A stretch of DNA of 64,000 nt from Oscillospiraceae bacterium (lineage in GTDB: Bacteria > Bacillota > Clostridia > Lachnospirales > Lachnospiraceae). Both the position numbers and the translations under genes were made by a program. The stretch spans positions 124,001 to 188,000 of the forward strand of contig JAETOO010000005.1 in assembly GCA_021771715.1 (NCBI GenBank). The letters run 5' to 3'. Shown piece after piece: positions 2 through 59,351 of the stretch (the first letter of the stretch is position 1; the number at the start of each line of letters is the position of its first letter). The notes under the pieces were generated by a model. It saw only the letters and a program-made list of their open reading frames with translations. It had not been told where the DNA came from and searched no databases.

Positions 2-523
2 GACCGGATCGCCGGAGCGTATTTTGACGAGGACGGATACGTGGACGGGACGTTTAACACGCATTTTCTGAAGCTTGACCAGGCGGAGCGCGCGGCGAAG
101 CTCGAGATTGCAAAGGCGATTCCGTTTGCGGAGACGAACGTAAAGTTGAAGGAGTACGCGTTTTCAGACGATGCGAGGAAGACGGGGGGTATCCGGCAGC
201 TGCTCTTGGCGCTGAGGGACTGCGAGCTGAAAAATGATGCGCTGCTGGATCTGCTCTATGAGAGAATCGGGGAGGAGTACCGTGCGGCAGGGCCGTTCGG
301 AGTCTTTTTCTTTCACGGCAGCTACGATGTGCCTAGAAGGGCGTCGGACAAGGCAGAGCAGTGGGAGTCAGAGGAGGTCTATCGGTTCCTGATCTGTGCC
401 GTCTGTCCGATCAGCGGGGACTATGAGCCGGGCAGGCCGGAATGCGGGTTCCTCTTTCCGGCATTTACGGATCGCTGCCCGAATCCGGACTGGATCGATG
501 TGTATGCGGCGATGCGGGAATGA
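2..523 (+). CDS. DUF4317-type protein, 5' end outside window, short C-terminus
   Basis: The reading frame is open from the window edge, so the true start lies upstream; a GTG at 41 is only an internal codon. About 173 residues are visible. The pattern of YFDEDG, then TFNTHFLKL, then a stretch with YDVPRRASD, VYRFLICAVCP and GFLFPAFTDR resembles the N-terminal half of DUF4317 proteins, a clostridial family of unknown function that I remember as roughly 400 residues. Here the protein stops soon after the GFLFPAF motif, so the C-terminal half seems to be missing. The stop codon lies inside the first unit of a tandem repeat (511-676), which may have replaced the normal 3' end. It could be a truncated paralogue or a pseudogene; the family call is from memory. 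Confidence 0.6.
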   Translation, partial: DRIAGAYFDEDGYVDGTFNTHFLKLDQAERAAKLEIAKAIPFAETNVKLKEYAFSDDARKTGGIRQLLLALRDCELKNDALLDLLYERIGEEYRAAGPFGVFFFHGSYDVPRRASDKAEQWESEEVYRFLICAVCPISGDYEPGRPECGFLFPAFTDRCPNPDWIDVYAAMRE

Positions 524-676
524 GCACGTGTATGCGGCTGTGTCGGGATAAAACATGCATACAGTGATGTAGGAATGAATATGTACGTGCAGCAGTGCCG
601 GGATGAATATGTGTATACAGTTGTGCCGGGATGAATATATGCGTGCAGCGGTGCCGGGATGAATGTGTATACGGTT
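511..676. repeat. Tandem repeat, six units of 26-29 bp, across a stop codon
   Basis: Six degenerate units start at 511, 540, 566, 595, 623 and 651. The common core is close to GTGCCGGGATGAATATG followed by GTGTATACAG. The first unit contains the last codons and the TGA of the DUF4317-type gene. There are no spacers between units, so this is not CRISPR. The rest of the gap up to the helicase (677-779) shows nothing else apart from the helicase ribosome binding site. Confidence 0.8.
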
Positions 677-779
677 GTGCCAGAACCGGGGAAGAGGAAA
701 GAGAATCTTTGCGTCTGATTCGGAAGAGATGGCGGGTCTTTATATCTAACCCGGAAGAGATAGGTGGGGGAGGAGACGC

Positions 780-3149
780 ATGCGGACGAGAGAGAGTCTG
801 TGCGGAGCGAAAGATACGGCGGACGTAGTTCAGGCTGAGAAGAGACGGGATAGTGATTCTGTGAACGAGATGTATCAAGATACCTTTTTTGGGAAGAAAA
901 TAGATCAGACTGCGCCCCCAGAATATGAAAAAAGTCAGACTGCCTATATCGGGCGTGTGGAAGTGCAGGCTGGCGGGTTTCTGTATGAGGAAGGCGGGGA
1001 GGATCTGTTGGATGACCTGAATCCGTCTCAGCGGGAGGCGGTGACGGCGACGGAGGGGTATATCCGCGTGGTTGCGGGGGCGGGCTCCGGCAAGACGCGC
1101 GCGCTTTCGAGGCGCTTTGCGTATCTGGTCAACGAGCTGGGGATTCTGCCGGGCAATATCCTCTGTGTCACATTTACGAACAAGTCTGCAAACGAGATGC
1201 AGCGCCGGATTCACAACCTGACCGGGGACAATGACACGGGCTATATCAACACCTTTCACGGGTTCTGTGTCTCGATCCTGCAGGAGGACAGCTACGCGGT
1301 GCAGTATCCGAAGAGTTTTCTCGTGCTCGACAATTCCGATATCGACGAGATGCTGAAGCTGATCTATGAGGAGCGCGGTCTGACACTGCGGGATATGACG
1401 TTTGGGAATGCGCGCGATATGATCGAGCAGCGGAAGCTGTTCAAGGAGCCGGAGTATTATCTGGATCTGATTACGATGTCGCTCGAGACGCTGCGGCAGA
1501 AATATCAGAATGCGTCCGAGCCCGGGGATATCATTTTCTATGGCTATCTGTATCAGGAGAAAAAGTGCTTCGGGCTTGACTACAATGATCTGATTAAATT
1601 TTCCCTCTATATTTTTGAACAGAGCGAGGAAATCCGGCTCAAGTGGCAGCAGCGGCTCGAATATATCATGATTGATGAGTTTCAGGATATTGACAGACTG
1701 CAGTATCAGCTGATGGAGGTGCTGTGCGGCTACCATAAGAATCTGTTTATTGTGGGTGACCCGGATCAGACGATCTACACGTGGCGCGGCGCGAATGTGA
1801 GATATCTGCTCGACTTCGACCGGGTGTTCCCCAAGGTGCGGACAATCATGATGATGCAGAACTATCGGTCGACGCCGCAGATTCTTGCTGCCGCAAACTC
1901 CTTGATTGAAAAGAATACACAGCGGTTGAAGAAAGAGCTGCTCCCGGTATTGCCGGATGGCCCGGAGGTGTACTGCCATCATGCGGCCAACGCAGAGGCA
2001 GAGGCGAAATGGATCGCCGGGCAGATGAAGGAGCTCCATGACAGAGGGATTGCGTGGAAGGAGATGACGGTCCTGTACCGGGCGCACTATGTGACGCGGA
2101 ACGTCGAAGAGGTGCTGCTTCGGGAGGAGATTCCTTACAATATTTACAGTGGGGTCCAGTTCTTTGGGCGGATGGAGATTAAGGATGCGCTCTGCTATCT
2201 GCGGATGATCGCGTACAAGGATGATCTTTCGTTTCTGCGGATTGCGAATGTGCCAAAGCGGAATCTTGGCGAGCGGCGCATGAAATTCCTGAATGCGTAT
2301 GCGCAGGAGAATGGTCTGTCGCTCTACGATGCGCTGAGGCAGACGCTGGAGCATGAACTGATCCGCGGGACGGGTGCGGCAGCGTTTGTGGCCCTGGTGG
2401 AGCGGTTTTCGAAGGAGTACGCGCAGAGGCAGGTATCGGAGGTGCTCGCCAAACTGCTGGATGAGAGCGGGTATGAGCGGATGCTGCGCACGGAGGGGAG
2501 CCAGGAGCGGCTGGACAACCTCGCAGAGCTGAAACAGTCGGTTTATGAGTATGAGACGACGTGCGGCGAGGAGGCGACGCTGGAGCAGTACCTCGCGCGG
2601 GTTGCGCTGTTTACAAACAGCGATGCGGATGTGGGCGGGGACAAGGTAAAGCTGATGACCGTGCACGCCGCGAAGGGGCTGGAATTTCCGTACGTATTTT
2701 TGTGCGGGATGAATGAAGGTATTTTCCCGTCCCGGAAGGTGCGGACGCAGCAGGGCATGGAGGAAGAGCGCCGGCTCGCATTTGTGGCGGTGACGCGCGC
2801 CATGCAGGGCCTGTACTTGTCGGATGCGGAGGGGCGGAATTTCGACGGGAGTCCGCGTTATCCGTCCCGTTTTCTGCTGGATATCGATCCGGCGCTTCTG
2901 CATTTTACAGAGAAGCCGAAGGACAGCCTGATCGCGGAGGCGCGGTCGTACATCGCGATGAGCAGGAAATTCCTGGCTGACGATGCGGGGAGACAGCTGC
3001 TCGCGGTCGGGACGAGAGTCAGGCACGGCGTGTTCGGCACCGGGACGGTGGAAGCGCTGGATCTCGAGAAGGGCGCGTACCGGATTCGCTTCGACGAGCT
3101 CCCCACACCGAGGTCAATTTCATTTCGCGCGAAGCTGGTGTGCGTCTGA
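780..3149 (+). CDS. UvrD/PcrA-like superfamily 1 DNA helicase
   Basis: This 789-residue protein is an ATP-dependent 3'-5' DNA helicase of the UvrD/Rep/PcrA class, expected to act in repair and in clearing replication forks. Visible motifs in order are a Q-motif (LNPSQREAV), Walker A (AGAGSGKT, about residue 99-106), motif II DEFQDID (about 299), motif III GDPDQTIYTWRGA (about 325), motif IV QNYRSTPQIL and the late motif MTVHAAKGLEFPYVFLCG. The C-terminus (VGTRVRHGVFGTGTVEAL) looks like the PcrA-type Tudor-like domain that contacts RNA polymerase. The ATG at 780 follows GGAGGAG at good distance. About 75 residues precede the helicase core and look poorly conserved. The last codons are the first unit of a 40-bp tandem repeat. 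Confidence 0.9.
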   Translation: MRTRESLCGAKDTADVVQAEKRRDSDSVNEMYQDTFFGKKIDQTAPPEYEKSQTAYIGRVEVQAGGFLYEEGGEDLLDDLNPSQREAVTATEGYIRVVAGAGSGKTRALSRRFAYLVNELGILPGNILCVTFTNKSANEMQRRIHNLTGDNDTGYINTFHGFCVSILQEDSYAVQYPKSFLVLDNSDIDEMLKLIYEERGLTLRDMTFGNARDMIEQRKLFKEPEYYLDLITMSLETLRQKYQNASEPGDIIFYGYLYQEKKCFGLDYNDLIKFSLYIFEQSEEIRLKWQQRLEYIMIDEFQDIDRLQYQLMEVLCGYHKNLFIVGDPDQTIYTWRGANVRYLLDFDRVFPKVRTIMMMQNYRSTPQILAAANSLIEKNTQRLKKELLPVLPDGPEVYCHHAANAEAEAKWIAGQMKELHDRGIAWKEMTVLYRAHYVTRNVEEVLLREEIPYNIYSGVQFFGRMEIKDALCYLRMIAYKDDLSFLRIANVPKRNLGERRMKFLNAYAQENGLSLYDALRQTLEHELIRGTGAAAFVALVERFSKEYAQRQVSEVLAKLLDESGYERMLRTEGSQERLDNLAELKQSVYEYETTCGEEATLEQYLARVALFTNSDADVGGDKVKLMTVHAAKGLEFPYVFLCGMNEGIFPSRKVRTQQGMEEERRLAFVAVTRAMQGLYLSDAEGRNFDGSPRYPSRFLLDIDPALLHFTEKPKDSLIAEARSYIAMSRKFLADDAGRQLLAVGTRVRHGVFGTGTVEALDLEKGAYRIRFDELPTPRSISFRAKLVCV

Positions 3150-3405
3150 GAAAGCGGGAATCCGTCAGGCAAAACAGGTGTGCGGCTGAAAAGTCGGAAG
3201 ACAATCAAGCAAAACAGGTGTGCAGCTGGGAAGGCGGGAGGCTGTCAGGCAAAACGTGTGTGCAGCTGGGAAGGCGGGAGGCTATTAGGCAAAACGTGTG
3301 TGCAGCTGGGAAGGCGGGAAGCTGTCAGGCAAAACAGGTGTGAGGCTGAAAAGTCGGAAGATGATCAAGCAAAACAGGTGTGCAGCTGAAAAGTCGGAAG
3401 ACAGT
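3140..3405. repeat. 40-bp tandem repeat, about 6.6 units, starting in the helicase stop region
   Basis: Units begin at 3140, 3180, 3220, 3260, 3300, 3340 and 3380, a strict 40-bp period. Two variants alternate, one with GCTGAAAAGTCGGAAGA and one with GCTGGGAAGGCGGGA, each followed by a CAGGCAAAAC-like block. The first unit contains the last three codons and TGA of the helicase gene. The array fills nearly the whole gap to the next gene (start 3459). A 40-bp period keeps no reading frame, so it is not a coding extension. No promoter or terminator is evident in it. Confidence 0.9.
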
Positions 3406-3458
3406 TTCAAGGGAAGTGTCTGCAAGATAGAAGTTTTGTGCGTGACAGGGAGGATAGA

Positions 3459-5729
3459 ATGAGAGGAAAGACGGTAATCAGGATCAACGAGTTGAAGCTG
3501 CGGCCGGATCACACGCAGCAGGAGCTGGAGCATGAGATCCGCATGCTTCTGCAGCTGCGGGGGCAGTCTTTTCAATATGAAGTGATGCGCCGCTCGATTG
3601 ATGCGAGGAAGAAGCCGGAGCTGTTTTTTGTGTACACGGTGGATGTGAGCGTGGACCATCCGCAGGCAGTCCTGAAGCGCGCGAAGAAGAAGCGGGCAGT
3701 GCTCTGTGAGCGATGGGATTACGAATTTCCAGGTACGGCAATGGAGATGGAGTGCATTGCGGAGGAAGCGGAAGGGCGTGATGGACGTCGTGCGCCAGCG
3801 GGAGAACAGGGCTGTGGAGCGATGCATCGCCCGCCGGTGGTAGTCGGAAGCGGCCCGGCAGGGCTTTTCTGTGCGCTGATGCTCGCGCGCGCCGGCTTAC
3901 GGCCGATTGTCCTGGAGCGCGGGGAGCGGGTCGAGGCACGGGTGGAGACGGTGAACCGCTTCTGGCAGACGGGAGAGCTGAATCTGCGCTCGAATGTGCA
4001 GTTCGGGGAAGGCGGAGCAGGAACGTTCTCCGATGGAAAGCTGAATACGCTGATCAAGGATCCGGACGGGAGGATCCGCTTTGTGCTGCAGGAATTTGTG
4101 AGAGCGGGAGCGGATCCTTCGATCCTGTATGACCACAAGCCGCATATCGGCACAGATGTGCTGGTCGGCGTGGTCAGGCACATCCGCTGCGAGATCGAGC
4201 AACTCGGCGGAACGTTTCTGTTTGAAAGCTGTCTGACAGGGATTTCCGAGGGAGGATGCAGGGTAGACGGTGGGGCAGAGAGCGTATCGGCAGAGCATGC
4301 AGGGCAGTCAGACGGCGTGTGTGGGGATGTATCGCAGGTAGGCAGAACGGCAGACGGTACGTGTGAGGTAATATCACAGTCAGGCAAGTCTGTAGACGGT
4401 ATATGGGAGGATGACACGCAGTCAGGCAAGGCAGCGGATGGTATGCGGGAGGATGCATTGCGGACAGACAAGCCCGCGGATGAAGAGGACGGACATGTCT
4501 CGCAGCCGCCTGCGCGCTATATACTGGAGATCAACGGTGGGGAGCGCACGCTGGAGGCGGATGATGTGGTGCTTGCGATCGGGCACAGCGCGCGGGACAC
4601 GTTTGAGCTGTTACAGCGGTCGGGCTTCGCGCTGCAGCCGAAGGCGTTCGCGGTCGGGCTGCGCATGGAGCATCCGCAGCAGATGATCAATGAAGCGATG
4701 TACGGACGCGACTGCCCGTATGAGCTCGGGGCAGCGCCCTACAAGGTGACGCACAAGTGTGCAGACGGCCGGGGCGTGTATTCCTTTTGCATGTGCCCAG
4801 GAGGCTATGTGGTGAATGCCTCCTCCGAGGAGGGACGCCTCGCGGTAAACGGGATGAGCTACAGCGGACGCGGCAGTCAGAATGCGAACAGCGCGATCGT
4901 CGTCACCGTGACGCCGGAGGACTATCATGCAACCTCCCCGCTGGACGGAGTGGCGTTCCAGCGGGAGTTGGAGGAGCGTGCATACCGCTGCGGAAACGGG
5001 AAAATTCCGGTGCAGTATTTCCAGGATTTCTGCAGAGACGATGAGGCGAGGACGAGTCGCGGCGATGGCAGTTGTGAGGTGAGGGCGAGTCGCAGTGACG
5101 GCGGCTGTGAGGCGAGGGCGAGTCGCAGTGACGGTGGTTGTGAGGCGAGGACGAGTCGTAACGACGGCAGTTGTGAGGTGAGGACGAGTCGCAACGACGG
5201 CAGCTATGAGGCGAGGACGAGTTGCAGCGACGGCGGCTGTGAGGTGAGGACGAGTCGTAACGACGGCAGTTGTGAGGTGAGAACGAGTCGTGATGACAGC
5301 GGCTGTGAGGCAACGTCCGAGAAATGGGAACAGAAAGACAGCCGGACCGAAACTGTGGAAACACATGTATGTGTGACACCGGAAGAAACCGCCCTCTCGC
5401 CGGAAATCAAAGGTCAGTATACCTTTGCGGACGTCCGCTCCGTGCTCCCGGAAGCGTTGAATCAGGCATTGATCGAGGGAATTCACGCGTTTGGACGGCG
5501 GATTCCCGGCTTTGACCGCGGGGATGCGCTTTTGTCGGCGGTGGAGAGCCGCACCTCCTCCCCGGTCCGTATCCTGCGCGATCCAGCCACCTGCCAGGCA
5601 GTCATGCACCCCGGCATCTATCCCTGCGGAGAGGGCGCCGGCTACGCCGGAGGAATTACCTCAGCCGCAGTCGACGGAATCCGCATCGCCGAGGCGATGT
5701 GCAGGAGTTATAGTTCAGCCAGCCGCTGA
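3459..5729 (+). CDS. FAD-dependent oxidoreductase (COG2509 type) with two repeat insertions
   Basis: This 756-residue protein matches the family of NAD(FAD)-utilizing dehydrogenases. It has an N-terminal RNA-binding-like region, then a dinucleotide fold VVGSGPAGLFCALMLARAG at about residue 127, an ERGERV ribose-binding end, FGEGGAGTFSDGKL, and a C-terminal FAD motif PCGEGAGYAGGITSAAVDG. The reaction is unknown. Members are usually about 530 residues by my recollection; the excess is two low-complexity insertions, residues about 280-348 (14-residue repeats) and about 528-630 (11-residue repeats). The core motifs are intact on both sides, so the protein is probably still folded. The ATG at 3459 follows GGGAGG; an upstream in-frame GTG at 3438 has no such site. 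Confidence 0.85.
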   Translation: MRGKTVIRINELKLRPDHTQQELEHEIRMLLQLRGQSFQYEVMRRSIDARKKPELFFVYTVDVSVDHPQAVLKRAKKKRAVLCERWDYEFPGTAMEMECIAEEAEGRDGRRAPAGEQGCGAMHRPPVVVGSGPAGLFCALMLARAGLRPIVLERGERVEARVETVNRFWQTGELNLRSNVQFGEGGAGTFSDGKLNTLIKDPDGRIRFVLQEFVRAGADPSILYDHKPHIGTDVLVGVVRHIRCEIEQLGGTFLFESCLTGISEGGCRVDGGAESVSAEHAGQSDGVCGDVSQVGRTADGTCEVISQSGKSVDGIWEDDTQSGKAADGMREDALRTDKPADEEDGHVSQPPARYILEINGGERTLEADDVVLAIGHSARDTFELLQRSGFALQPKAFAVGLRMEHPQQMINEAMYGRDCPYELGAAPYKVTHKCADGRGVYSFCMCPGGYVVNASSEEGRLAVNGMSYSGRGSQNANSAIVVTVTPEDYHATSPLDGVAFQRELEERAYRCGNGKIPVQYFQDFCRDDEARTSRGDGSCEVRASRSDGGCEARASRSDGGCEARTSRNDGSCEVRTSRNDGSYEARTSCSDGGCEVRTSRNDGSCEVRTSRDDSGCEATSEKWEQKDSRTETVETHVCVTPEETALSPEIKGQYTFADVRSVLPEALNQALIEGIHAFGRRIPGFDRGDALLSAVESRTSSPVRILRDPATCQAVMHPGIYPCGEGAGYAGGITSAAVDGIRIAEAMCRSYSSASR
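4303..4490. repeat. In-frame 42-bp tandem repeat in the FAD oxidoreductase
   Basis: Units start at about 4303 (short), 4341, 4383, 4425 and 4467 (partial). Each encodes about 14 residues of the form GKxxDGxxEDxxxS. The period is a multiple of three, so the reading frame is kept. The insertion sits between the FAD domain and the following beta-strand ARYILEINGG. Confidence 0.85.
5043..5306. repeat. In-frame 33-bp tandem repeat, eight units, in the FAD oxidoreductase
   Basis: Eight units of exactly 33 bp run from 5043 to 5306. Each encodes 11 residues close to CEVRTSRNDGS. Units differ by scattered substitutions with no length change, as expected if frame-keeping is selected. One cysteine per unit is conserved in seven of eight units. 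Confidence 0.92.
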
Positions 5730-5866
5730 CAGAGAAGATCGCAGAGCCACACGAAAGTGCAAAAGCAAGTCTTTATAAGCAGTGTACAGGAGACAGTAGT
5801 TTAGCCAGCCACTGCCAGAGCAGATTGCAGGGCCGTCGGGAAGCGACTATAGCGAGTCTTTACAAG
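5717..5866. repeat. Diverged duplication (86-bp offset) of the oxidoreductase 3' end
   Basis: The segment from AGCCAGCCGCTGACAGAG at 5717, which holds the stop codon, is matched by AGCCAGCCACTGCCAGAG at 5803. Both copies continue with similar sequence ending TCTTTATAAG or TCTTTACAAG. The second copy is the left end of the 262-bp palindromic element at 5809-6070, so the gene tail itself resembles a partial copy of that element. Confidence 0.6.
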
Positions 5867-6070
5867 GACTTAGGTCTCAGAAGGCCGGAGTATCTGCAAA
5901 AATCCTGCGTTCCAGCAGGATTTTTAGACGGCATTGTCCGAGCAAAATGTGCATCAGGCACATTTTGTGAGTTGCCGGCGGCAGATGCGCAGGCATTCTG
6001 AGGCCTTAGTCCTTGTAGACGAGCGATTCGGAGCGTCCCGGCGGCCCTGCAATCTGCTCGTCCGGTTTTA
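5809..6070. mobile_element. 262-bp palindromic non-coding element, copy 1
   Basis: The left arm 5817-5897 is an imperfect inverted copy of the right arm 5981-6061, giving a stem of about 80 bp. The centre holds two hairpins: AAAAATCCTGC / GCAGGATTTTT (5898-5925) and CAAAATGTGC / GCACATTTTG (5943-5967), the second enclosed by a CGGC/GCCG stem. A second copy in the same orientation lies at 26911-27171. The first hairpin could act as a bidirectional terminator behind the oxidoreductase gene. No open reading frame of note is present. It looks like a MITE-type element or a repeated structured RNA. The remaining gap 6071-6258 shows no convincing promoter. Confidence 0.8.
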
Positions 6071-6258
6071 TAATATAACTGCAGCCCTCCTCCGGTAAGA
6101 AAAAATTAATAGTCTGGGTGTATACTTTCCATCAAAATTATGTTAGAATAACAAAATGATTCGAGCCATGCCGTGTGAAATAGGTTTCTCGCGCGTCCTC
6201 GCATCATGATGTCTGCACAGCAGGCAGAGCGGTTCTGGGGAGAGAGCCGGGTAACGAT

Positions 6259-21799: not shown

Positions 21800-22906
21800 A
21801 TGGGAAAGGGATCGGCGGAGAGACGCATTCACGTAAAGACAGCAGGAGATGCAGGCTATGATATCTGTCTGCAGGACTCGTTTGGAGCGCTGGCGGGGGA
21901 GCTGGCGAAGCTTGGCTGCGAGGGGCGCAGAGTCTGCATTGTGTCGGATTCGAACGTGGCCGGGCGGTATCTGGAGGCTGTAAAGCAGGAGGTTGCAGGC
22001 TGCGCGGCACAGGTGGAGACGTTTGTGTTTCCGGCGGGCGAGGAGAGCAAGACGCTCGCGAACGTGCAGGAGCTCTACGAGGTGCTGATCCGCGCGGGCT
22101 TTGACCGGAAGGATTTTCTGCTCGCGCTCGGCGGCGGGGTGGTCGGGGATCTGACCGGATATGCCGCGGCGACGTACCTGCGCGGTATCCGCTTTATCCA
22201 GGTGCCGACCACGCTGCTCGCGCAGATTGACAGCAGCGTCGGCGGGAAGACGGGCGTGGATTTTGACCAGTATAAAAATATGGTCGGCGCGTTCCACCAG
22301 CCGTCGCTCGTGTACATCAGCATACCGGTGCTGCGGACGCTGCCCGAGGAGCAGTTTGCCAGCGGGATGGGCGAGCTTTTGAAGTACGGGCTGAGCTTCG
22401 ACGCGGAGTTCTACGAGTGGGCGATCGAGCACATGGAGGAGATCGAGGAGCGCGATGCAGAGACGATGGCTTACATGGTCAGCAAGTGCTGCCAGTTGAA
22501 AAAGTACATCGTGGAGAAGGATCCGACGGAGAAGGGCGACCGCGCGCTGCTGAACTTCGGCCATACGGTCGGCCATGCGATCGAGAAGCTGAAGCATTTC
22601 GAGCTGACGCACGGCGCCTGCGTGGCGCTCGGAACCGTGGCGGCCGCGTACATTTCGTGGCAGAGAGGCTATCTGGACGAGGACGAGTTCTACGAGATCC
22701 GGGATATGAACGTCGGCTTCGGGCTCCCGATCTCCTTTGACGGGATCACGGAGGATGCGATCGTCGAGGCGACACGGCACGACAAGAAGATGGACGGCGG
22801 GAAGATCCGCTTCATCCTGCTGAAGAAGCTCGGCAAGGCGTTTATCGCGGAGGATGTGACGGAGAAGGAAATGCGCGAGGCAGTTCGGACGATGAAGGCG
22901 GACTAA
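21800..22906 (+). CDS. aroB: 3-dehydroquinate synthase
   Basis: The 368-residue protein closes DAHP to 3-dehydroquinate in the shikimate pathway, using NAD+ and a divalent metal. Motifs include FPAGEESKTLANVQELYEVL, LALGGGVVGDLTGYAAATYLRG, QVPTTLLAQIDSSVGGKTGVD, the metal-binding Glu in FASGMGELLKYGL and the His residues in NFGHTVGHAIEKL. ATG 21800 follows GGGAGGACGAT. The final 14 codons lie in a 72-bp tandem duplication. Confidence 0.96.
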   Translation: MGKGSAERRIHVKTAGDAGYDICLQDSFGALAGELAKLGCEGRRVCIVSDSNVAGRYLEAVKQEVAGCAAQVETFVFPAGEESKTLANVQELYEVLIRAGFDRKDFLLALGGGVVGDLTGYAAATYLRGIRFIQVPTTLLAQIDSSVGGKTGVDFDQYKNMVGAFHQPSLVYISIPVLRTLPEEQFASGMGELLKYGLSFDAEFYEWAIEHMEEIEERDAETMAYMVSKCCQLKKYIVEKDPTEKGDRALLNFGHTVGHAIEKLKHFELTHGACVALGTVAAAYISWQRGYLDEDEFYEIRDMNVGFGLPISFDGITEDAIVEATRHDKKMDGGKIRFILLKKLGKAFIAEDVTEKEMREAVRTMKAD

Positions 22907-23007
22907 CGGCATGGTTGACGCAGCGATTTGCCGGGGAAGGAGAGGCGCGAGGCAATCCGACGATGAAGGCAGACCAGCGGAATGCCTGACGCAGCGATCC
23001 GCCGGGG
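22864..23007. repeat. 72-bp tandem duplication of the aroB 3' end
   Basis: The block 22864-22935, which contains the last codons and TAA of aroB, is repeated at 22936-23007 with about 80 percent identity (GCGCGAGGCA, GACGATGAAGGC and GACGCAGCGAT recur at the same offset). In the second copy the codon aligned with TAA is CAG. The rest of the gap to lspA contains nothing else notable. Confidence 0.85.
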
Positions 23008-23042
23008 AAAGTGTGCATTTGGACGGATAGAGAGGATAGAGG

Positions 23043-26048: not shown

Positions 26049-26654
26049 ATGTACATAGAGATACTTACGACGAGCCGCTCGCGCAAGGACCCGTACCGGG
26101 CGTTCCGGCGGTTCCTGTCCGTCCGGCGGACCGGAAAAAACATGTACCGCGTGCAGGCCGAGGAGCAGCAGCTGCGAAAAGTGCGCCGGATCTGCAGGCG
26201 GCGCCACTACGAGCTGGTGCGCACCTACCCGGAAAACCGCGGCCGCAGCGACAGCTACCGGCAGGCCTTCCTGCGCCACTATCCGCGACCCTTCGGCGGC
26301 TACCGCTGCCGGTACTGCCACCGCCGTCTGTCCGACCGCAAGCTGATGATCGACCACATCTATCCCGTCTACCGGGCAAAGACAGGGAACGGTTTCTGGC
26401 TGCGGCTGCTCGGCATCGACGACGTAAACGACATCCGCAACCTCGCCCCCGCCTGCCGTCGCTGCAACACAAAAAAAGGCAGAAGCGCCGGCATCTGGAT
26501 CCTCCGGGCGATCCTTGGAAAATACGAACTCTACTGGATCGTGCGCCGATTGCTGCAGGCAGCAATCATACTTGCCCTCCTTCTTGCAGGCCAGAGACTT
26601 TTGCTGATGGTACAGAGCGGCCAGGGACTGACATCCATCTTTCCAATGCAATAA
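26049..26654 (+). CDS. HNH-type nuclease-like protein with C-terminal hydrophobic segment
   Basis: The 201-residue protein has a zinc-ribbon HNH core: Cys87 and Cys90 (CRYCHRRLS), Asp102-His103 (MIDHIYPVYR), NDIRNLAPACRRCNTKKG with the second CxxC. The start is very basic. Residues about 165-190 (YWIVRRLLQAAIILALLLAG) form a likely membrane helix, unusual for an HNH nuclease. The final 10 residues and stop are the first unit of a 41-bp tandem array, so the natural C-terminus may have been altered. Substrate unknown; no restriction, phage or toxin partner is adjacent. Confidence 0.75.
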   Translation: MYIEILTTSRSRKDPYRAFRRFLSVRRTGKNMYRVQAEEQQLRKVRRICRRRHYELVRTYPENRGRSDSYRQAFLRHYPRPFGGYRCRYCHRRLSDRKLMIDHIYPVYRAKTGNGFWLRLLGIDDVNDIRNLAPACRRCNTKKGRSAGIWILRAILGKYELYWIVRRLLQAAIILALLLAGQRLLLMVQSGQGLTSIFPMQ

Positions 26655-26870
26655 AGAGGTCCAGGGACTGACGCCCATCTTTCCAATGCAATAAAGAGTC
26701 TCCAGGGACTGACGCTCATCTTTCCAATGCAATAAAGAGTTTCCGGGGACTGACGCTCATCTTTCCAATGCAATAAAGAGTCTCCAGGGACTGACGCCCA
26801 TCTTCCCAATGCAATAAAGAGTCTCCGGAGACTGACGCCCATCTTTCCAATGCAATAAAGGATCTCCAGG
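26621..26870. repeat. 40-41-bp tandem repeat, six units, starting in the HNH gene
   Basis: Units begin at 26621, 26661, 26702, 26743, 26784, 26825 and a last partial at 26866. The core is CCAGGGACTGACGC then CATCTTTCCAATGCAATAAAG. The first unit encodes the last residues and TAA of the HNH gene; each unit repeats that TAA. It is contiguous with no spacers. The stretch 26871-26910 leads into the palindromic element. Confidence 0.92.
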
Positions 26871-26910
26871 GCCTATCAGCGATCTTAGCCGCAGATTACC
26901 ATTCGCCCAA

Positions 26911-27171
26911 CCACTGTCAGAGAAGATTGCAGGGCCGCCGGAACGCGACTATAGCGAGTCTTTACAAGCACTTGGGTCTCAGAAGGTCGGAGCATCTGTA
27001 AAAATCCTGCCTTCCGGCAGGATTTTTAGCCGGCTCTGTCTGAGAAAAATGTGCATCCGGCACATTTTTCGAGTTGCCGGCGGCAGATGCGCAGACCTTC
27101 TGAGACCCTAGTACTTGTAGACGAGCGATTCGGAGCGTTCCGGCGGCCCTGCAATCTTCTCGTCCGTTTTA
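26911..27171. mobile_element. 262-bp palindromic non-coding element, copy 2
   Basis: This is the second copy of the element at 5809-6070, in the same orientation and about 85 to 90 percent identical. The left and right arms again form a long stem, and the two inner hairpins are kept (AAAAATCCTGC / GCAGGATTTTT and AAAAATGTGC / GCACATTTTT). Several differences between copies are paired, for example the ends of the second hairpin and the AAGGTC/GACCTT pair of the outer stem, which supports a conserved fold. Confidence 0.8.
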
Positions 27172-27224
27172 GCGACATCCGTTTTAGCGACATCCGTTTT
27201 AGCGACATCCGTTTTAGCCACATC
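27165..27224. repeat. 15-bp tandem repeat, four units
   Basis: CGTTTTAGCGACATC is repeated at 27165, 27180, 27195 and 27210, with one substitution in the last unit. The first unit overlaps the right end of the palindromic element, so the array appears to be an expansion at the element border. Confidence 0.95.
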
Positions 27225-27244
27225 CTGTTTATCTAAAAAAACAC

Positions 27245-30606: not shown

Positions 30607-30636
30607 AAAATATACGGCATTTCACAAGATGACGGT

Positions 30637-30768
30637 ATTCCATTGCGCTGCAATGTACATTGCAGAAATATTCCATTGCGCCGCGTTGTGCACCGCAGAA
30701 ATATTCCGTCGCGCCGCGTTGTGCATCGCAGAAATATTCCGTCGCGCTGTGTCGTACACTGTAGGAAT
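30637..30768. repeat. 33-bp tandem repeat, four units, intergenic
   Basis: Four units at 30637, 30670, 30703 and 30736 share ATTCC(A/G)TTGCGCCGCG then TTGTGCA and GCAGAAAT. The array lies between the divergent Gx and GH42 genes. Because the period is 33 bp, several frames stay open through it, but none has a supported start. The rest of 30607-30948 holds the GH42 promoter and nothing else recognised. Confidence 0.92.
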
Positions 30769-33089: not shown

Positions 33090-33275
33090 ATTTTATCTCA
33101 ATTACAAGAGCAACAAGTTTCCGGTAAAACGGAATGAAAAGGGAAACCGGTGTGAATCCGGTACGGTCCCGCCACTGTGAGAGGGAGTCCTCTGTCGGTA
33201 TGCCATTGCGCGAGCGAGAAGGCGGCAGAGAGCGAAGAACTTGAGTCAGGAGACCTGCTTGTGCTGAATCGGCTG
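33090..33275 (+). promoter_or_regulatory. Cobalamin (B12) riboswitch
   Basis: The leader contains the cobalamin riboswitch core in order: GAAAAGGGAAACCGGTGTGAATCCGG (33135-33160, split motif), the B12 box region GTCCCGCCACTGTGA (ending 33180) and the downstream AGTCAGGAGACCTGC (33244-33258). It is followed by an intrinsic terminator at 33320, so B12 binding probably ends transcription early and represses the ABC importer genes. Confidence 0.93.
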
Positions 33276-33319
33276 AGTTATTCTTACGGTGGATGAGAAG
33301 GACTGGTGATATGTCTGCG

Positions 33320-33410: not shown

Positions 33411-34349
33411 ATGGACAAAAGACAATGCTGCAGAAGACTTCTGCAGATCGCGGTCGTGCTGGTCGGGATCAGTTTTCTGACCTTTGCGCTCACCTACCTC
33501 GCGCCCGGAGATCCGGTGCGCTCCATGTATGCGGCGAACGGCACAATCCCAAGCGAGGCGGTGCTGCAGCAGACGCGGGAGGAGATGGGGCTGAACCGGC
33601 CCTTCCTGGTGCAGTATTTTGACTGGCTGACGGGCTGCCTGCGCGGCGACTTCGGCAGATCCTACTCGCTGAAAAAGCCGGTGGCCGAGCTGCTTGCGGC
33701 GAGACTCTGGCCCACCTTGAAGCTGTCGCTGCTGTCCCTGCTTTTGATGCTTCTGTTCGCGGTCCCGTTCGGGATGCTCTCCGCCGTCTACAAAGGGAAG
33801 CCGGTCGATTACCTCGTGCGCGGGTGCACCTTCTTCGGGGTGTCGATGCCGAATTTCTGGGTCGGGCTGCTGCTCCTCTACGTCGTGGCGCTCGAGCTGA
33901 AGCTGGTCCCGGTCGTGTCCTCCGGGAAGGGCTTCGACAAACTCATTCTGCCCGCGGTCACGCTCGCGTTTGCGATGGCGGCCAAGTATACGCGCCAGGT
34001 GCGCACCGCCGTGCTCGAGGAGCTGAATCAGGACTACGTGGCAGGGGCGCGTGCGCGCGGGATCAGAGAGCGCACGATCCTCTGGAGGCACGTCTTCCCG
34101 AACGCCCTGCTCCCGCTGATCACGATGCTCGGGCTCTCGCTTGGCTCGCTGCTCGGGGGCACCGCGGTCGTCGAGGTGATTTTTTCCTACCCGGGCCTCG
34201 GCAATCTGGCGATCAAGGCGATTCAGGCGATGGATTATCCGCTGATCCAAGGCTACGTGCTCTGGACTGCGCTGATCTACATGGCGCTGAATCTTCTGGT
34301 CGACATTTCCTACAACTATGTGGATCCGCGGATCAGGGAAAAGAGGTAA
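33411..34349 (+). CDS. ABC transporter permease, DppB/NikB type
   Basis: The 312-residue protein has about six membrane helices with TYLAPGDPVRSMY at the N-terminus, GMLSAVYKGKPVDYLVR and the coupling-helix EAA motif YVAGARARGIRERTILWRHVFPNALLPLIT. It belongs to the peptide/nickel permease family. First gene behind the cobalamin riboswitch; ATG 33411 follows GGAGGT. Confidence 0.9.
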   Translation: MDKRQCCRRLLQIAVVLVGISFLTFALTYLAPGDPVRSMYAANGTIPSEAVLQQTREEMGLNRPFLVQYFDWLTGCLRGDFGRSYSLKKPVAELLAARLWPTLKLSLLSLLLMLLFAVPFGMLSAVYKGKPVDYLVRGCTFFGVSMPNFWVGLLLLYVVALELKLVPVVSSGKGFDKLILPAVTLAFAMAAKYTRQVRTAVLEELNQDYVAGARARGIRERTILWRHVFPNALLPLITMLGLSLGSLLGGTAVVEVIFSYPGLGNLAIKAIQAMDYPLIQGYVLWTALIYMALNLLVDISYNYVDPRIREKR

Positions 34350-46593: not shown

Positions 46594-46713
46594 CAGGTGC
46601 GTCGGACAGCGTGCGGGCGACGGTGCGACCGGGCAGGTGCGTCAGACAGCGTGCGGGCGACGGTGTGACCGGGCAGGTGCGTCGGACAGCGTGCGGGCGA
46701 TGGTGTGACCGGA
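46594..46713. repeat. 40-bp tandem repeat, three units, before the Fur-like gene
   Basis: Three units at 46594, 46634 and 46674 share CAGGTGCGTCGGACAGCGTG then CGGGCGACGGTGTGACCGG. It starts 7 bp after the stop of the Cys-rich protein gene. The last unit runs into the GGAAGGG that serves as ribosome binding site of the Fur-like gene. Confidence 0.9.
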
Positions 46714-46723: not shown

Positions 46724-47233
46724 ATGCAGAGGGAAGAGATTATTGAGAGCCTGAAGGCGCAGGGCTGCCGGATCACGAAGCAGCGGCTGACGCTTCTGGA
46801 TGTGATTCTGGAGGAGGACTGCTCCTGCTGCAAGGAGATTTACTACAAGGCCTCCCTGAAGGATTCCGGCATCGGGATGGCGACGGTATACCGGATGGTG
46901 AATATGCTGGAGCAGATCGGCGCGATCGGACGGAGAAGTATCTATCCGCGGTGCAGCGGCGAGCAGGGGGAACAGAAGACCGATTCGGAGCCGGGCTGCA
47001 GCGGCGCGCAGGAGACGCAGAAGACCGATTCGGAGCCGGGCTGCAGCGGCGAACAGGGGATGCAGAAGACTGATTCGAAGCCGGGCTGCAGCATCGAGCT
47101 GAGCGACCACACGGTCTTCTGCCTGTCGCCGGAGCGGCTGCGGGATGTGATGCAGGCCGGGCTGCGCGCATGCGGCTACATCGGCGATCAGGAAATCGAG
47201 ACCATCCTGCTTCGGGCAGTCAGATCGCGTTAA
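46724..47233 (+). CDS. Fur-family-like regulator with a repeat insertion
   Basis: The 169-residue protein has a Fur-type winged helix (EIIESLKAQGCRITKQRLTLLDVILEED, CCKEIYYKASLKDSGIGMATVYRMVNMLEQIGAI). Where Fur proteins carry the His-rich metal and dimerization region, it has three 15-residue repeats (CSGEQGEQKTDSEPG type, residues about 78-122) and a short tail ending RLRDVMQAGLRACGYIGDQEIETILLRAV. The typical HHH metal ligands and CxxC zinc site are not evident, although each repeat brings one Cys. It may be a DNA-binding protein that has lost or changed metal sensing. Start ATG 46724 fits GGAAGGG better than ATG 46718. Confidence 0.78.
   Translation: MQREEIIESLKAQGCRITKQRLTLLDVILEEDCSCCKEIYYKASLKDSGIGMATVYRMVNMLEQIGAIGRRSIYPRCSGEQGEQKTDSEPGCSGAQETQKTDSEPGCSGEQGMQKTDSKPGCSIELSDHTVFCLSPERLRDVMQAGLRACGYIGDQEIETILLRAVRSR
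46957..47091. repeat. In-frame 45-bp tandem repeat in the Fur-like gene
   Basis: Three copies of a 45-bp unit (GGCTGCAGCGGCGAACAG core, with CAGAAGACCGATTCG) encode three 15-residue repeats. The copies are more than 85 percent identical, so the expansion looks recent. Confidence 0.88.
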
Positions 47234-48763: not shown

Positions 48764-48913
48764 GCCGGCTCAATCGTCCGTCTCGTCGAGCAGATACAGG
48801 GCGGTGCTCAGACGACTGCTTACCGGCAGGCGCGGGGCGATGCGTCAGTCGTCGGTCTCGTCGAGCAGATACGGCAGGAAATAGGTCGTCTGCCGGTACC
48901 ACCAGTCCCAGTC
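48764..48913. repeat. 75-bp duplication of the esterase 3' end
   Basis: GTCTCGTCGAGCAGATAC occurs at 48780 and 48855, an offset of 75 bp, with similar sequence on both sides. The copy at 48855 is the true end of the esterase gene (stop at 48845-48847, minus strand); the other lies just downstream of the stop. It fills much of the gap between the esterase and ATP-grasp genes. Confidence 0.75.
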
Positions 48914-54371: not shown

Positions 54372-54380
54372 GAATGGACG

Positions 54381-54418: not shown

Positions 54419-54444
54419 CACTTCATAGATCAGGAGAGAACGAT

Positions 54445-55737: not shown

Positions 55738-55740
55738 AGT

Positions 55741-55956
55741 TCAGCCATGCATAAAAAATGGGAAGACAGACCGTGCAAGCTTGCTTGCTAAGGGCTGTAT
55801 TACCATTTTTGAATGGGCGGAGCGGTGCTGAGTCCCAGTGGGACTCGTTTAGCACCGACCGAAGCGAAGCGTAGACCCATTCAGCCACAGACAGGAGCCG
55901 CAAAGCGGCAGATAGCTTGCGCAGCAAGCGCGTCTGCGGCTTGCATGGCGTCCTGG
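55741..55956 (-). mobile_element. Interspersed structured element, copy 2 (MITE-like)
   Basis: In reverse orientation this 216-bp segment matches 17002-17167 almost base for base, with the inverted ends GCCATGCA (55745) and TTGCATGGC (55941). It carries about 55 extra bases in the middle, themselves a hairpin (CGGTGCTGAGTCCCA region at about 55823 pairs with GGACTCGTTTAGCACCG). It starts 3 bp after the obg stop and can supply a terminator. The rest of the gap up to 56027 holds only the yhbY ribosome binding site. Confidence 0.78.
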
Positions 55957-56027
55957 ATAAGTATAAAGGATTTGCGGAAGATACTTGATTTGGACAGTGA
56001 GATAAAGTAAAATAGTTGGAGGATATT

Positions 56028-56333
56028 ATGACGAGCAAGCAGCGCGCATATTTAAAGAGCCTTGCGATGACAATGGATCCGATTTTTCAGATCGGGAAAT
56101 CGAGTCTGACTCCGGAGCTGACGGCTGCGGTCGCGGAGGCGCTCGAGGCACGGGAGCTGATCAAGATCAGCGTGCTCCAGAACTGTATGGATGACCCGAA
56201 CGAGCTCGCGCAGATGGTGGCGGAGCGCACCCGGTCCCAGGTCGTACAGGTCATCGGGAAGAAGATTGTCCTGTACAAAGAGGGCAAGGACGACAAGAAA
56301 AAAATCGAGCTCCCAAAGGCGGGGCGGAAGTAG
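56028..56333 (+). CDS. yhbY: YhbY-type (CRM domain) RNA-binding protein
   Basis: The 101-residue protein has the CRM pattern MTSKQRAYLKSLAMTMDPIFQIGKSSLTPEL and VQVIGKKIVLYKEG. It binds pre-50S particles. ATG 56028 follows TTGGAGGATATT. First of a ribosome/NAD block with nadD, yqeK and rsfS. Confidence 0.93.
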   Translation: MTSKQRAYLKSLAMTMDPIFQIGKSSLTPELTAAVAEALEARELIKISVLQNCMDDPNELAQMVAERTRSQVVQVIGKKIVLYKEGKDDKKKIELPKAGRK

Positions 56334-56361
56334 GGCGGTGTGACTGCGAGGAGGACTGGCT

Positions 56362-56979
<618 letters not shown>

Positions 56980-57146
56980 CGGAAAACAGGTATGGAGTGT
57001 GGTTGCAGCGCTTAAGAAGAGCAGTCTGTACTGCAGCGTCTGCGGGTGGCAGAAAAAGTGGACGGAGGCGTCAAGCGCATGGTTGAAGTTGCAGAGTCCG
57101 TCTGCTGTGAAAATATAGAAATCGGAACACAGAGGGTAAGGAAGAG

Positions 57147-57737
57147 ATGAGCACGTACAATCTTGGAAAGATGCAGAAGAAGCTGAAGAAATATATGGAT
57201 GACGGGAGGTATGAGCATACGCTTGGCGTGATGTACACAGCCGCGGCGCTTGCGATGTGCTACGGGGAGGATATCGAGCGGGCCCAGGTGGCCGGATTGC
57301 TCCACGACTGCGCGAAGTGCATTCCGAATGAGAAAAAGCTGAAGCTCTGCAAGCAGCACGGGATTCCGGTGTCTGAGATTGAGAAATCATCCCCCTATCT
57401 GCTGCACGCGAGCCTTGGCGCCTATATCGCGAGGGAAAAGTATGATATCAGCGATCCGGAGATCCTGAGCGCGATCGCGTGTCACACGACGGGAAAGCCG
57501 GACATGACCCTGCTGGAGAGGATTATTTTTATTTCCGATTATATAGAACCAATGCGGTCCAAGGCGTCTAATCTGCCGAAGATCCGCCGGCTGGCATTTG
57601 AGGATCTGGATCTCGCGGTCTACATGACGCTGCGGGATACGCTCGCGTATCTGGAGACCGAGAAGACAGCGCTGGATCACCAGACGACGGTCGCATACGA
57701 ATATTACAGGACTTTGATTGAAGAAAGGGAGGCATAG
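57147..57737 (+). CDS. yqeK: YqeK-type HD-domain hydrolase
   Basis: The 196-residue protein has the HD pattern RYEHTLGVMYTAAALA with AGLLHDCAKC, and later HTTGKPDMTLLERIIFISDYIEPMR. YqeK proteins hydrolyse diadenosine tetraphosphate symmetrically. The order nadD-yqeK-rsfS is standard. Confidence 0.93.
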   Translation: MSTYNLGKMQKKLKKYMDDGRYEHTLGVMYTAAALAMCYGEDIERAQVAGLLHDCAKCIPNEKKLKLCKQHGIPVSEIEKSSPYLLHASLGAYIAREKYDISDPEILSAIACHTTGKPDMTLLERIIFISDYIEPMRSKASNLPKIRRLAFEDLDLAVYMTLRDTLAYLETEKTALDHQTTVAYEYYRTLIEEREA

Positions 57738-57740
57738 TAT

Positions 57741-58097
57741 ATGGCAGACAGGAAATCGAAGGAGATGGCAAGGCTCGCATACGATGCGCTTGCAGAAAAG
57801 AAGGCACAGGATATCAAGATTATCAATATCGAGGGCGTTTCCGTGATCGCCGACTACTTTATTATCGCCTCCGGTACGAACCACAATCAGGTGCAGGCGA
57901 TGGCTGACAGCGTGGAGGAAGCGCTGGGCAGAGCAGGCCATCCGGCGAGGCAGACGGAGGGCTACCAGACGGCGAACTGGATTCTGATGGATTTTGGCGA
58001 TATCATCGTGCATGTGTTTGACACGGAGAACCGCCTGTTTTACGATCTCGAGCGGATCTGGAGAGACGGGAAGGAAATCGCGGTGGAAGAGCTGTGA
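57741..58097 (+). CDS. rsfS: Ribosomal silencing factor RsfS
   Basis: The 118-residue protein has DIKIINIEGVSVIADYFIIASGTNHNQVQAMAD and WILMDFGDIIVHVFDTENRLFYDLERIW, seen in pieces, diagnostic of RsfS. It binds L14 and blocks subunit joining in starvation. It starts 3 bp after yqeK. Confidence 0.96.
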   Translation: MADRKSKEMARLAYDALAEKKAQDIKIINIEGVSVIADYFIIASGTNHNQVQAMADSVEEALGRAGHPARQTEGYQTANWILMDFGDIIVHVFDTENRLFYDLERIWRDGKEIAVEEL

Positions 58098-58131
58098 GAG
58101 AACTTGAGACTGGGAATGGGAGATAGAGGAC

Positions 58132-58935
58132 ATGGCAGTAGATAAGACATTTTTGATGAGGAGTATACAGAAGAGAGAAGAGATGATCGTGGCATATTGC
58201 GCGTATACGAATATGCCGTTTGTGATCTGTGATCCGGAGACGTTCAACGATCAGATCTGGATTTTTGAGACGGAGGAGCAGCTGAAGGAATTTGCGAAGC
58301 CGTACACGGAGAAGAAGATCATGCTCAAGGGCATCAAGTATCCGAACAAGAATTTCCTGGGCTTTTTCTCCATGCTGTTCACGATCGGGGTAAATGAGCT
58401 GGTATTCGTGAACGACAAGGGCCAGGAGAGGCTGGAGCTCGGGGAGCTTGTGAAGCGCCCTGATTTTTCGAAGCTTCCGAAGGAGCAGCAGCCGGTCACG
58501 AATCCGGAGCTGCAGCTGACCGGGCTCTATTTTATGCAGGAGGCAGCCCGCCCGGTTCCGAACGAGGAGAAGCATGCTGCTGAGCTGGAGGAGGAGCTGG
58601 CGGCGAACCTGTTCAAGGCGCGCTACATTGTCCCGCTCGAGCTGCTCGAGGGGCCGGAGAGCGACATGGAAAAGCTGAAGAATAAGAAGTACCGTCTCCC
58701 GATTCTGAAGAACAAGAACGGCGATATGCTTCAGCCGCTGTTCACGGACCCGAATGAGCTGGCGAAGTTTGACCGTGAGAAGAAGCTCAAGGCGCTCGCG
58801 ATGCCGTTTGCGAATCTGACGAAGGTGCTGATCAAGGATTCGAAGGGATTTCTGCTGAACCCGGCAGGCTTCCACATCGCGATGCCGAAGGAGCTGGTAG
58901 AGGGACTGCCGAAGCGGTTCGGGCAGGACGCGTAG
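58132..58935 (+). CDS. SseB-family protein
   Basis: The 267-residue protein resembles SseB-type proteins: two related alpha/beta halves, the first with NMPFVICDPETFNDQIWIFETEEQLKEFAKPY and the second with KYRLPILKNKNGDMLQPLFTDPNELAKFD. The C-terminus FLLNPAGFHIAMPKELV matches the SseB end motif. Function unknown; it is soluble. It lies 34 bp after rsfS, followed by a terminator. Confidence 0.75.
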   Translation: MAVDKTFLMRSIQKREEMIVAYCAYTNMPFVICDPETFNDQIWIFETEEQLKEFAKPYTEKKIMLKGIKYPNKNFLGFFSMLFTIGVNELVFVNDKGQERLELGELVKRPDFSKLPKEQQPVTNPELQLTGLYFMQEAARPVPNEEKHAAELEEELAANLFKARYIVPLELLEGPESDMEKLKNKKYRLPILKNKNGDMLQPLFTDPNELAKFDREKKLKALAMPFANLTKVLIKDSKGFLLNPAGFHIAMPKELVEGLPKRFGQDA

Positions 58936-59010
58936 ATTGTGCAGGGCACATAGAGAGAAGTGCGTCCGGCTGTGGTGAGCCGGGGCAGATAATAAGTGAA
59001 GAGAACAAAA

Positions 59011-59060
59011 AGAATATCCCGCGGACGGATGTTAAGTGTCCATACGCGGGATATTTCTAT
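59011..59060 (+). terminator. Terminator after the SseB-family gene
   Basis: AATATCCCGCG and CGCGGGATATT form an 11-bp stem followed by TCTATTC. It ends the yhbY-nadD-yqeK-rsfS-SseB transcript. Confidence 0.78.
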
Positions 59061-59180
59061 TCGTAAAATATCTGTGCAACAGATTATTATGTTCGCCGGT
59101 TTGATATTCATTCTGTTTCTGTAAAATGATGGTTACATTTAAATATTCACAATAACCAGTAGGCAGCCAAAAACTAAAAA

Positions 59181-59205
59181 GTTTACATAATTTAATTACG
59201 TAAAC
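59181..59205. promoter_or_regulatory. 25-bp palindromic site between convergent genes
   Basis: The arms GTTTACATAATT and AATTACGTAAAC are inverted copies with one mismatch pair. A related site lies at 62864-62888. The 11 bases AGTTTACATAA match the XerD half-site I recall from Bacillus subtilis dif. The surrounding gap 58936-59293 is AT-rich and otherwise holds only the terminator at 59011 and the lexA tail duplication. Confidence 0.5.
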
Positions 59206-59235
59206 AGAACAAAAAAATGTTATGACCGGAAATTC

Positions 59236-59351
59236 GGAGCAGAAACAGAACACGTCGAGTACCTTGCCTGGAATCTGGCCACCGCGGTGTGCATCAGAAG
59301 AAGCGGAACACGCCGAACACCTTGCCCAGAATCTGGCAGTCGTCGACGATG
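59236..59351. repeat. 58-bp duplication of the lexA 3' end
   Basis: The pattern GAACACG, ACCTTGCC, AGAATCTGGC-type blocks occurs at 59248 and again at 59306, a 58-bp offset. The second copy is the true lexA end with its stop (59294-59296, minus strand); the downstream copy lacks a stop at the equivalent position. Confidence 0.75.

What the first reader, a model, noticed from the sequence alone, without database searches (positions are those of the whole stretch)
511..59351. Recurrent tandem duplications that begin in the last codons of genes and run past the stop
Seven separate loci show the same geometry: a tandem array or duplication whose first unit contains the final codons and the stop of a gene. 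They are the DUF4317 gene (511), helicase (3140), FAD oxidoreductase (5717), aroB (22864), HNH gene (26621), esterase (48764-48913, minus strand) and lexA (59236-59351, minus strand). Periods differ (26-29, 40, 86, 72, 41, 75, 58 bp) and the sequences are unrelated, so this is a process and not one repeat family. At aroB and lexA the extra copy lacks the stop. Placement at gene ends on both strands is hard to explain by chance slippage alone; it may reflect tolerance of slippage only there, or a mechanism linked to transcription ends.
Basis: seen in the sequence. Interest (0 to 1): 0.75.

Follow-up and report, generated by a model that had tools for sequence, protein, structure and literature searches.

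The report
Genome-wide minisatellites, tolerated outside gene starts
The repeats at gene ends are real, but they look like the part of a genome-wide crop of short tandem duplications that happens to fall on gene ends; such duplications are mainly kept away from gene starts and from positions that would break a reading frame.

Summary
Five of the seven loci are genuine tandem duplications spanning a stop codon. A sixth (DUF4317) is an array that starts clearly only about 50 bp past the stop. The seventh (FAD gene) is the solo end of a dispersed palindromic element, and that fragment supplies the stop. I tested the proposed enrichment on 1.65 Mb (39%) of the same genome: 180 strong arrays (10.9 per 100 kb), of which 93 lie inside genes, 57 between genes, 25 across a stop, 4 across a start and 1 across both. 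Within array-bearing same-direction intergenic regions, stop-straddling is near uniform expectation (17 of 59 against 14.1, p=0.20), and in convergent regions equal to it (7 of 15 against 7.0). Against uniform placement over all intergenic sequence, straddlers are about twofold in excess (25 against 13-15); I could not fully explain this away. All 93 coding arrays have periods divisible by three, against 6 of 25 across stops. Best reading: one lineage-wide minisatellite process acting everywhere, filtered by selection. A mechanism tied to gene ends is not required, though not excluded. The surprising part is the density, and arrays with different units in the MutL linker of 5 of 9 species. The closest published parallel is the repeats of archaeal Borgs.

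The parts
501..681 (+). Array, period 28 (56), clear from about 559-575; degenerate units reach back over the stop (521-523) of a DUF4317 gene
   Evidence: TRF 575-681; 64%-identical unit at 501-556; beats shuffles
3137..3402 (+). 40-bp array, 6.7 copies, across the stop (3147-3149) of a UvrD-type helicase gene
   Evidence: TRF; two orthologues at 70-73% identity align to residue 786-787 of 789 and have no repeat there
5711..5781 (+). Solo left end of the dispersed palindromic element; supplies the stop (5727-5729) of the FAD-protein gene
   Evidence: blastn to element 76.6% over 64 bp and lag-86 match to the next copy
5795..6078 (+). Full copy of the dispersed palindromic element
22853..23009 (+). 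71-bp duplication, 2.2 copies, across the aroB stop (22904-22906)
   Evidence: TRF; the 20 best relatives align to residue 366-368 of 368; in 19 of 20 no repeat at the end scores above the shuffles, in one a short one 61-86 nt past the stop does, 11 v 8
26621..26871 (+). 41-bp array, 6.1 copies, 91% matches, across the stop (26652-26654) of an HNH gene
   Evidence: TRF; HNH match
26897..27180 (+). Full copy of the dispersed palindromic element; -171 kcal/mol as RNA
48770..48872 (-). Two-copy duplication (lag 75) across the esterase gene stop (48845-48847)
59241..59337 (-). Two-copy, decayed duplication (lag 58) with the lexA stop (59294-59296) between the matched parts
   Evidence: LexA aligns to residue 204 of 204 in 12 of 12 same-genus relatives, none of which has this duplication
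5042..5311 (+). 33-bp in-frame array (8.2 copies) inside the FAD-protein gene
46952..47099 (+). 45-bp in-frame array (3.3 copies) inside a Fur-family gene
61987..62091 (+). 36-bp in-frame array inside a DUF1002 gene
30636..30747 (.). 33-bp array between two divergent gene starts (counter-example to the stop geometry)
46594..46712 (+). 40-bp array, 3 copies, filling most of the gap between the FeoB-associated gene and fur
27163..27230 (+). 15-bp array, 4.5 copies, intergenic, at the edge of the palindromic element

Best explanation
The genome undergoes frequent tandem duplication of short segments (118 of 180 arrays have periods of 28-48 bp) that then expand into minisatellites. Births appear to fall without much regard to gene ends. 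What survives is set by selection: inside genes only in-frame units, mostly hydrophilic; around stops any unit length, because the first copy keeps the gene end intact and later copies are untranslated; around start codons very little, because the ribosome site, start and promoter would be disturbed. The gene-end loci are the share of this process that lands on stops, plus one piece of a dispersed element. Shown: the distribution, the frame filter and the avoidance of starts. Inferred: that selection is the filter, and that births arise by replication slippage or unequal exchange and grow by further slippage or recombination.
For: On 1,645,814 bp and 1266 called genes, TRF score >=100 gives 180 arrays: 93 in CDS, 57 intergenic, 25 across a stop, 4 across a start, 1 across both. 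Periods divisible by 3: 93 of 93 in CDS, 25 of 57 intergenic, 6 of 25 across stops. An independent lag detector finds 168 repeats, 88 of 88 in CDS divisible by 3, and 0 in block-shuffled sequence. In 59 co-directional regions positions do not differ from uniform (KS p=0.68; 17 straddlers v 14.1, p=0.20); in convergent ones 7 of 15 v 7.0. Array coverage is 0.018 in the last 20 nt of genes and 0.034-0.081 past stops, but 0.004-0.005 at starts. There are 15 arrays in 23.9 kb of convergent, 63 in 179 kb of co-directional and 6 in 44 kb of divergent intergenic DNA. Corrected for frame, the CDS rate (93x3 per 1396 kb = 0.20 per kb) is close to the intergenic rate (57 per 250 kb = 0.23 per kb; my arithmetic). 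Mismatches between neighbouring coding units favour the third codon position (1134 v 831 and 758). MutL linkers of 5 of 9 orthologues fetched carry arrays with different units. In 630 kb of genus relatives 9 of 9 coding arrays are divisible by three, with 15 intergenic and 2 across stops.
Against: A genome-wide null that places one unit at random over gene junctions expects 13.0 or 13.5-14.8 stop-straddlers of 82, even with 100 nt forbidden upstream of starts; 25 are seen. If the 25 arrays across stops are counted with the 57 intergenic ones, the non-coding rate is 0.33 per kb, above the coding 0.20. Edge density is 0.86 per 1000 positions at 0-19 nt past stops and 0.40-0.44 at 1-40 nt before them, against 0.2-0.3 further out; part of this is that a long array has to fit in the gap, which the within-region test allows for. 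In the within-region test the first tenth holds 10 of 59 (5.9 expected), values outside 0-1 were clipped, and the unclipped mean is 0.36. With the last 100 or 150 nt before starts forbidden, array edges before +20 are in mild excess (p=0.03, 0.029). That test takes as given which regions carry arrays; these are shorter than length-weighting predicts (median 222 v 289). Repeats recur past lexA in relatives. Gene calls are my own and not curated. The coverage ramp by itself does not exclude births near stops.
Confidence: 0.78

Rival explanations
1. Gene ends are true hot spots: transcription termination, R-loops or convergent transcription provoke duplications there.
For: About twofold excess over the genome-wide one-unit null (25 v 13.0-14.8); edge peak at 0-19 nt; highest density in convergent regions; 5 of 12 same-genus relatives have other repeats within 280 nt past lexA; arrays are G- and A-skewed on the sense strand relative to other co-directional intergenic DNA (GC skew 0.319 v 0.255, p=0.016; A-T 0.107 v 0.06, p=0.001).
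Against: At or near uniform within array-bearing co-directional and convergent regions; 93 of 180 arrays lie inside genes; coding arrays show a skew in the same direction.
Confidence: 0.14
2. Genes grew into pre-existing intergenic arrays by losing their original stop, so the stop falls in the first unit.
For: True in kind for the FAD gene, whose stop lies in an element fragment.
Against: aroB, lexA and the helicase align to within 0-3 residues of their last residue with relatives that lack the duplication: 20 best aroB relatives, 12 same-genus lexA relatives, 2 helicase orthologues.
Confidence: 0.04
3. The arrays are selected at gene ends, for example as terminators or mRNA stabilisers.
For: They persist although neighbouring units have decayed to 74-81% median identity.
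Against: Sequences unrelated and periods different; the aroB, lexA and helicase duplications are not shared by relatives. No shared structure was sought across arrays.
Confidence: 0.03
4. Artefact of assembly or chance similarity.
For: None found; no reads were available.
Against: Units differ by substitutions, coding arrays keep frame in 93 of 93 cases, block shuffles give 0.
Confidence: 0.01

Closest known systems
Bacterial minisatellites / VNTR loci (name recalled; reviews seen only in search listings)
   Same: Head-to-tail units of tens of bp, in genes in frame and between genes in any length
   Different: Density of 10.9 per 100 kb at TRF >=100 is far above the baselines sampled: 0.44 in 80 aroB loci, 0 in 50 kb of E. 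coli, 4.1 in genus relatives
Tandem-repeat regions of archaeal Borg elements (PMC9879509; outline and abstract, sections 2.1.3 and 2.1.4 and twelve passages seen)
   Same: About half in ORFs, all of those with unit lengths divisible by three; intergenic ones mostly not; units nearly all unique; composition bias in both classes; [quoted passage not shown]
   Different: Here a bacterial (Lachnospiraceae-related) genome; units imperfect (median 74-81% between neighbours) where that paper took only perfect ones; G and A skew rather than A alone
Palindromic dispersed repeats / MITE-like elements (recalled), for the 5717 locus
   Same: Dispersed short palindromes with inverted ends, all 22 sampled places outside called genes
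   Different: Very long near-perfect hairpin (99 predicted pairs) with 24 compensated pairs; no match in 20 relatives or in 72,556 plasmid records

Membership tests
Minisatellite / VNTR | Head-to-tail units of about 10-100 bp | tested here: met
Minisatellite / VNTR | Unit number varies between strains | not testable with these tools
   No strain of this species met; best orthologues of the three genes searched are 73-88% identical
Minisatellite / VNTR | Coding arrays keep the reading frame | tested here: met
   93 of 93; 88 of 88
Borg-type tandem repeats | Perfect units, at least 3 | tested here: not met
   Median neighbour identity 0.79 (CDS), 0.81 (intergenic), 0.74 (across stops)
Borg-type tandem repeats | Units in ORFs divisible by three, intergenic ones mostly not | tested here: met
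   93 of 93 in CDS; 25 of 57 intergenic (44%), somewhat above the Borgs' 14-38%
Borg-type tandem repeats | Units unique within the genome | tested here: met
   One related pair among 180 arrays
Borg-type tandem repeats | Encode disordered segments | tested here: inconclusive
   Disorder-promoting residues 0.87 in arrays v 0.68 in the rest of the same proteins; no disorder predictor run
   Not significantly enriched within regions; about twofold over a genome-wide null
MITE-like element (5717 locus) | Terminal inverted repeats | tested here: met
   Arms and outer inverted ends
MITE-like element (5717 locus) | Target-site duplication and a partner transposase | not tested
   No target duplication was obvious by eye in 11 printed flanks; no transposase sought

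The most novel reading that the evidence does not exclude
This genus of Lachnospiraceae-type bacteria has a standing, genome-wide tandem-duplication process, a bacterial counterpart of the Borg repeats, that writes mostly 28-48-bp minisatellites at about the same rate in genes and between them, remodels the linkers of housekeeping proteins such as MutL repeatedly and independently, and leaves gene-end arrays as by-products.
Probability: 0.3. Interest if true: 0.65.

Novelty: new member of a known kind. Interest (0 to 1): 0.4.

Why it matters
The gene-end pattern is probably a map of survivors that looks like a map of births. The same data give a usable contrast: a lineage where short tandem duplications are frequent enough to measure, beside relatives where they seem rarer, so the cause of minisatellite birth in bacteria could be sought by comparison. 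The near equality of frame-corrected coding and intergenic rates is a testable claim.

Tried and rejected
Loss of repair genes as the cause: the PolA 5' nuclease domain, SbcD, MutL and RecJ are all found in this genome. MutL's linker is enlarged (longest ORF 801 aa v 673-730 in the eight orthologues fetched); whether that affects function is unknown. Other repair genes were not searched.

A sharp lower limit of the period at about 28 bp, suggesting a recombination length threshold: dropped, because two-copy repeats shorter than about 25 bp cannot reach either detector's cut-off. With copies >=4 the mode at 30-41 bp remains but shorter periods appear as well.

Array-length and two-unit nulls for straddling (41.1 and 23.4 expected of 82 v 25 seen) were computed and not preferred, because a duplication that contains a stop has it in its first unit. 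An earlier run on 863 kb with simpler gene calls (59 in CDS, 27 intergenic, 17 across stops, 2 across starts, 1 both) was superseded, which adds 139 genes, called in gaps that were mostly of low GC.

Rows dropped: of 87 non-CDS arrays the one across both ends was left out; of the other 86, 84 had both neighbours. Of the 63 co-directional ones, three across starts and one straddler with no room were left out, so 59 entered the uniformity test with 17 of the 18 straddlers. In one search, 2 of 13 element copies could not be anchored. In one search only 36 of 75 candidates were scored for this genome, so the copy number is a lower bound.

Corrections made on re-reading: one search's positions past lexA are in unoriented loci; one search gives the strand, and the text uses that. 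The extra check covers the 20 best of 80 aroB loci, 12 same-genus lexA loci and 2 helicase orthologues.

Literature: eight counted searches; only named Lachnospiraceae (0 papers). No paper in their listings was seen to describe this pattern in bacteria; most subscription journals are not held. PMC9879509 was seen in part (outline and abstract, two sections, twelve passages); other papers only as search listings.
Full report
What is there. The window is G000:C52:124001-188000 of a 4.18-Mb, 54-contig genome. The nearest named aroB matches are Lachnospiraceae metagenome genomes at 78-81% identity. All seven loci have a lag match above 60 shuffles. Three are TRF arrays that include a stop (helicase, aroB, HNH), two are decayed two-copy duplications on both sides of a stop (esterase, lexA), and one (DUF4317) is an array clear only from about 559, past the stop at 521-523, with a 64%-identical unit reaching back over it. 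The seventh is something else: at the FAD gene, 5719-5781 matches the end of a dispersed palindromic element, a full copy follows at once, and the gene's stop lies in the fragment. The window also holds six arrays that the finding leaves out, three inside genes and three between genes, one of these between two divergent gene starts.

I took 1,645,814 bp of the same genome (39%; and the window), called 1266 genes with a two-model caller and ran TRF. At score >=100 there are 180 arrays: 93 inside genes, 57 intergenic, 25 across a stop, 4 across a start, 1 across both. Stop against start is 25 to 4. Whether 25 is many depends on the null. Placing one unit at random over all junctions gives 13.0-14.8 of 82, whatever zone upstream of starts up to 100 nt is forbidden, so 25 is about twofold high; edges also peak 0-19 nt past stops. 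Placing the unit at random within the very intergenic regions that carry an array gives 14.1 of 59 in co-directional regions (17 seen, p=0.20; positions not different from uniform, KS p=0.68, though the first tenth holds 10 of 59 and the unclipped mean is 0.36) and 7.0 of 15 in convergent ones (7 seen). Forbidding the last 100 or 150 nt before starts makes the near-stop share mildly high (p about 0.03). The gap between the two nulls goes with uneven density by region length: 0.20-0.24 per kb in co-directional regions up to 50 bp, 0.41-0.48 at 51-200 bp, 0.20-0.25 above 200 bp. I read this as no need for a stop-directed mechanism, with an excess of up to twofold not excluded.

What sets the pattern. 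Coding arrays have periods divisible by three in 93 of 93 cases, those across stops in 6 of 25, intergenic ones in 25 of 57. A second detector gives 88 of 88 in coding sequence and none in shuffled sequence. Mismatches between neighbouring coding units favour the third codon position (1134 v 831 and 758 at positions 1 and 2), so they look translated and constrained. Array coverage is 0.004-0.005 from 60 nt inside starts to 19 nt upstream of them and passes 0.05 only beyond about 100 nt, whereas it is already 0.034 in the first 20 nt after stops. Density falls from convergent to co-directional to divergent regions (15 in 23.9 kb, 63 in 179 kb, 6 in 44 kb), as avoidance of starts predicts. If two thirds of coding births are lost to frame, the implied coding rate (0.20 per kb) is close to the purely intergenic one (0.23 per kb; 0.33 if arrays across stops are added), by arithmetic. 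Coding arrays are rich in S, E, Q, G and A and poor in hydrophobic residues such as F, Y, L and I.

Age and origin. aroB, lexA and the helicase align to within 0-3 residues of their ends with relatives, and the 20 best aroB relatives, 12 same-genus lexA relatives and 2 helicase orthologues do not have these duplications, so at these three loci the array most likely came after the stop. Five of the 12 lexA relatives do have other repeats within 280 nt past the stop, with periods 40, 45, 12, 17 and 10: the same flank hit again with different units, which fits tolerance and would fit a hot spot too. Relatives in the same genus have 26 arrays in 630 kb, 4.1 per 100 kb; four genomes of the same order have 1 in 120 kb; 80 aroB loci of mostly Lachnospiraceae have 2 in 454 kb, and 50 kb of E. 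coli has none. This genome has 180 in 1646 kb, 10.9 per 100 kb. Metagenome assemblies may lose arrays and aroB loci are core regions, so these ratios are rough. In the linker of MutL, 5 of 9 orthologues fetched (14 of 15 genomes had a match) carry arrays (periods 24; 42; 39 and 39; 42 and 36; 42) whose unit peptides look unrelated by eye. Known suspects for slippage, PolA 5' nuclease, SbcD, MutL and RecJ, are present. How duplications are born is inference: slippage or unequal exchange.

Comparison. [quoted passage not shown] The units here are imperfect, so it is not the same class by that paper's threshold.

The dispersed element. At least 36 places in this genome match over 143 bp or more (80-94% identity to the query copy) and none in 20 relatives; none in 72,556 plasmid records. 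All 22 places in the sample lie outside called genes. Nine copies aligned give a 99-pair hairpin with 24 pairs in which at least one copy changed both sides and kept the pair. Either the structure is selected or the two arms are corrected against each other.

Noticed in passing
window 5795-6078 and 26897-27180; at least 36 places genome-wide: Genome-specific ~260-bp palindromic element: 238-bp core between inverted arms, two inner hairpins that look like terminators, 24 of 99 pairs compensated across nine copies; no match in 20 relatives.
   Followed up: partly
G000:C52:279766-281907 (L245) and MutL orthologues L247-L254: MutL linker carries tandem arrays with different units in 5 of 9 orthologues fetched; this genome's MutL ORF is 801 aa.
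   Followed up: partly
L226, L228, L229, L231, L232 (lexA loci of same-genus relatives): Unrelated repeats (periods 40, 45, 12, 17, 10) lie within 280 nt past the lexA stop in 5 of 12 relatives.
   Followed up: partly
window 46952-47099: Three 15-residue repeats inside a Fur-family protein; the five matches in relatives stop at residues 75-84, about where the array begins.
   Followed up: no
window 5042-5311: Eight 11-residue repeats, the first two printed ones ending in Cys, inside an FAD-dependent protein.
   Followed up: no
window 60081-60149 (-): Skipping-rope RNA (RF02924), 40.3 bits against a cut-off of 36.7.
   Followed up: no
window 33098-33276 (+): Cobalamin riboswitch (RF00174) upstream of the gene at 33411.
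   Followed up: no
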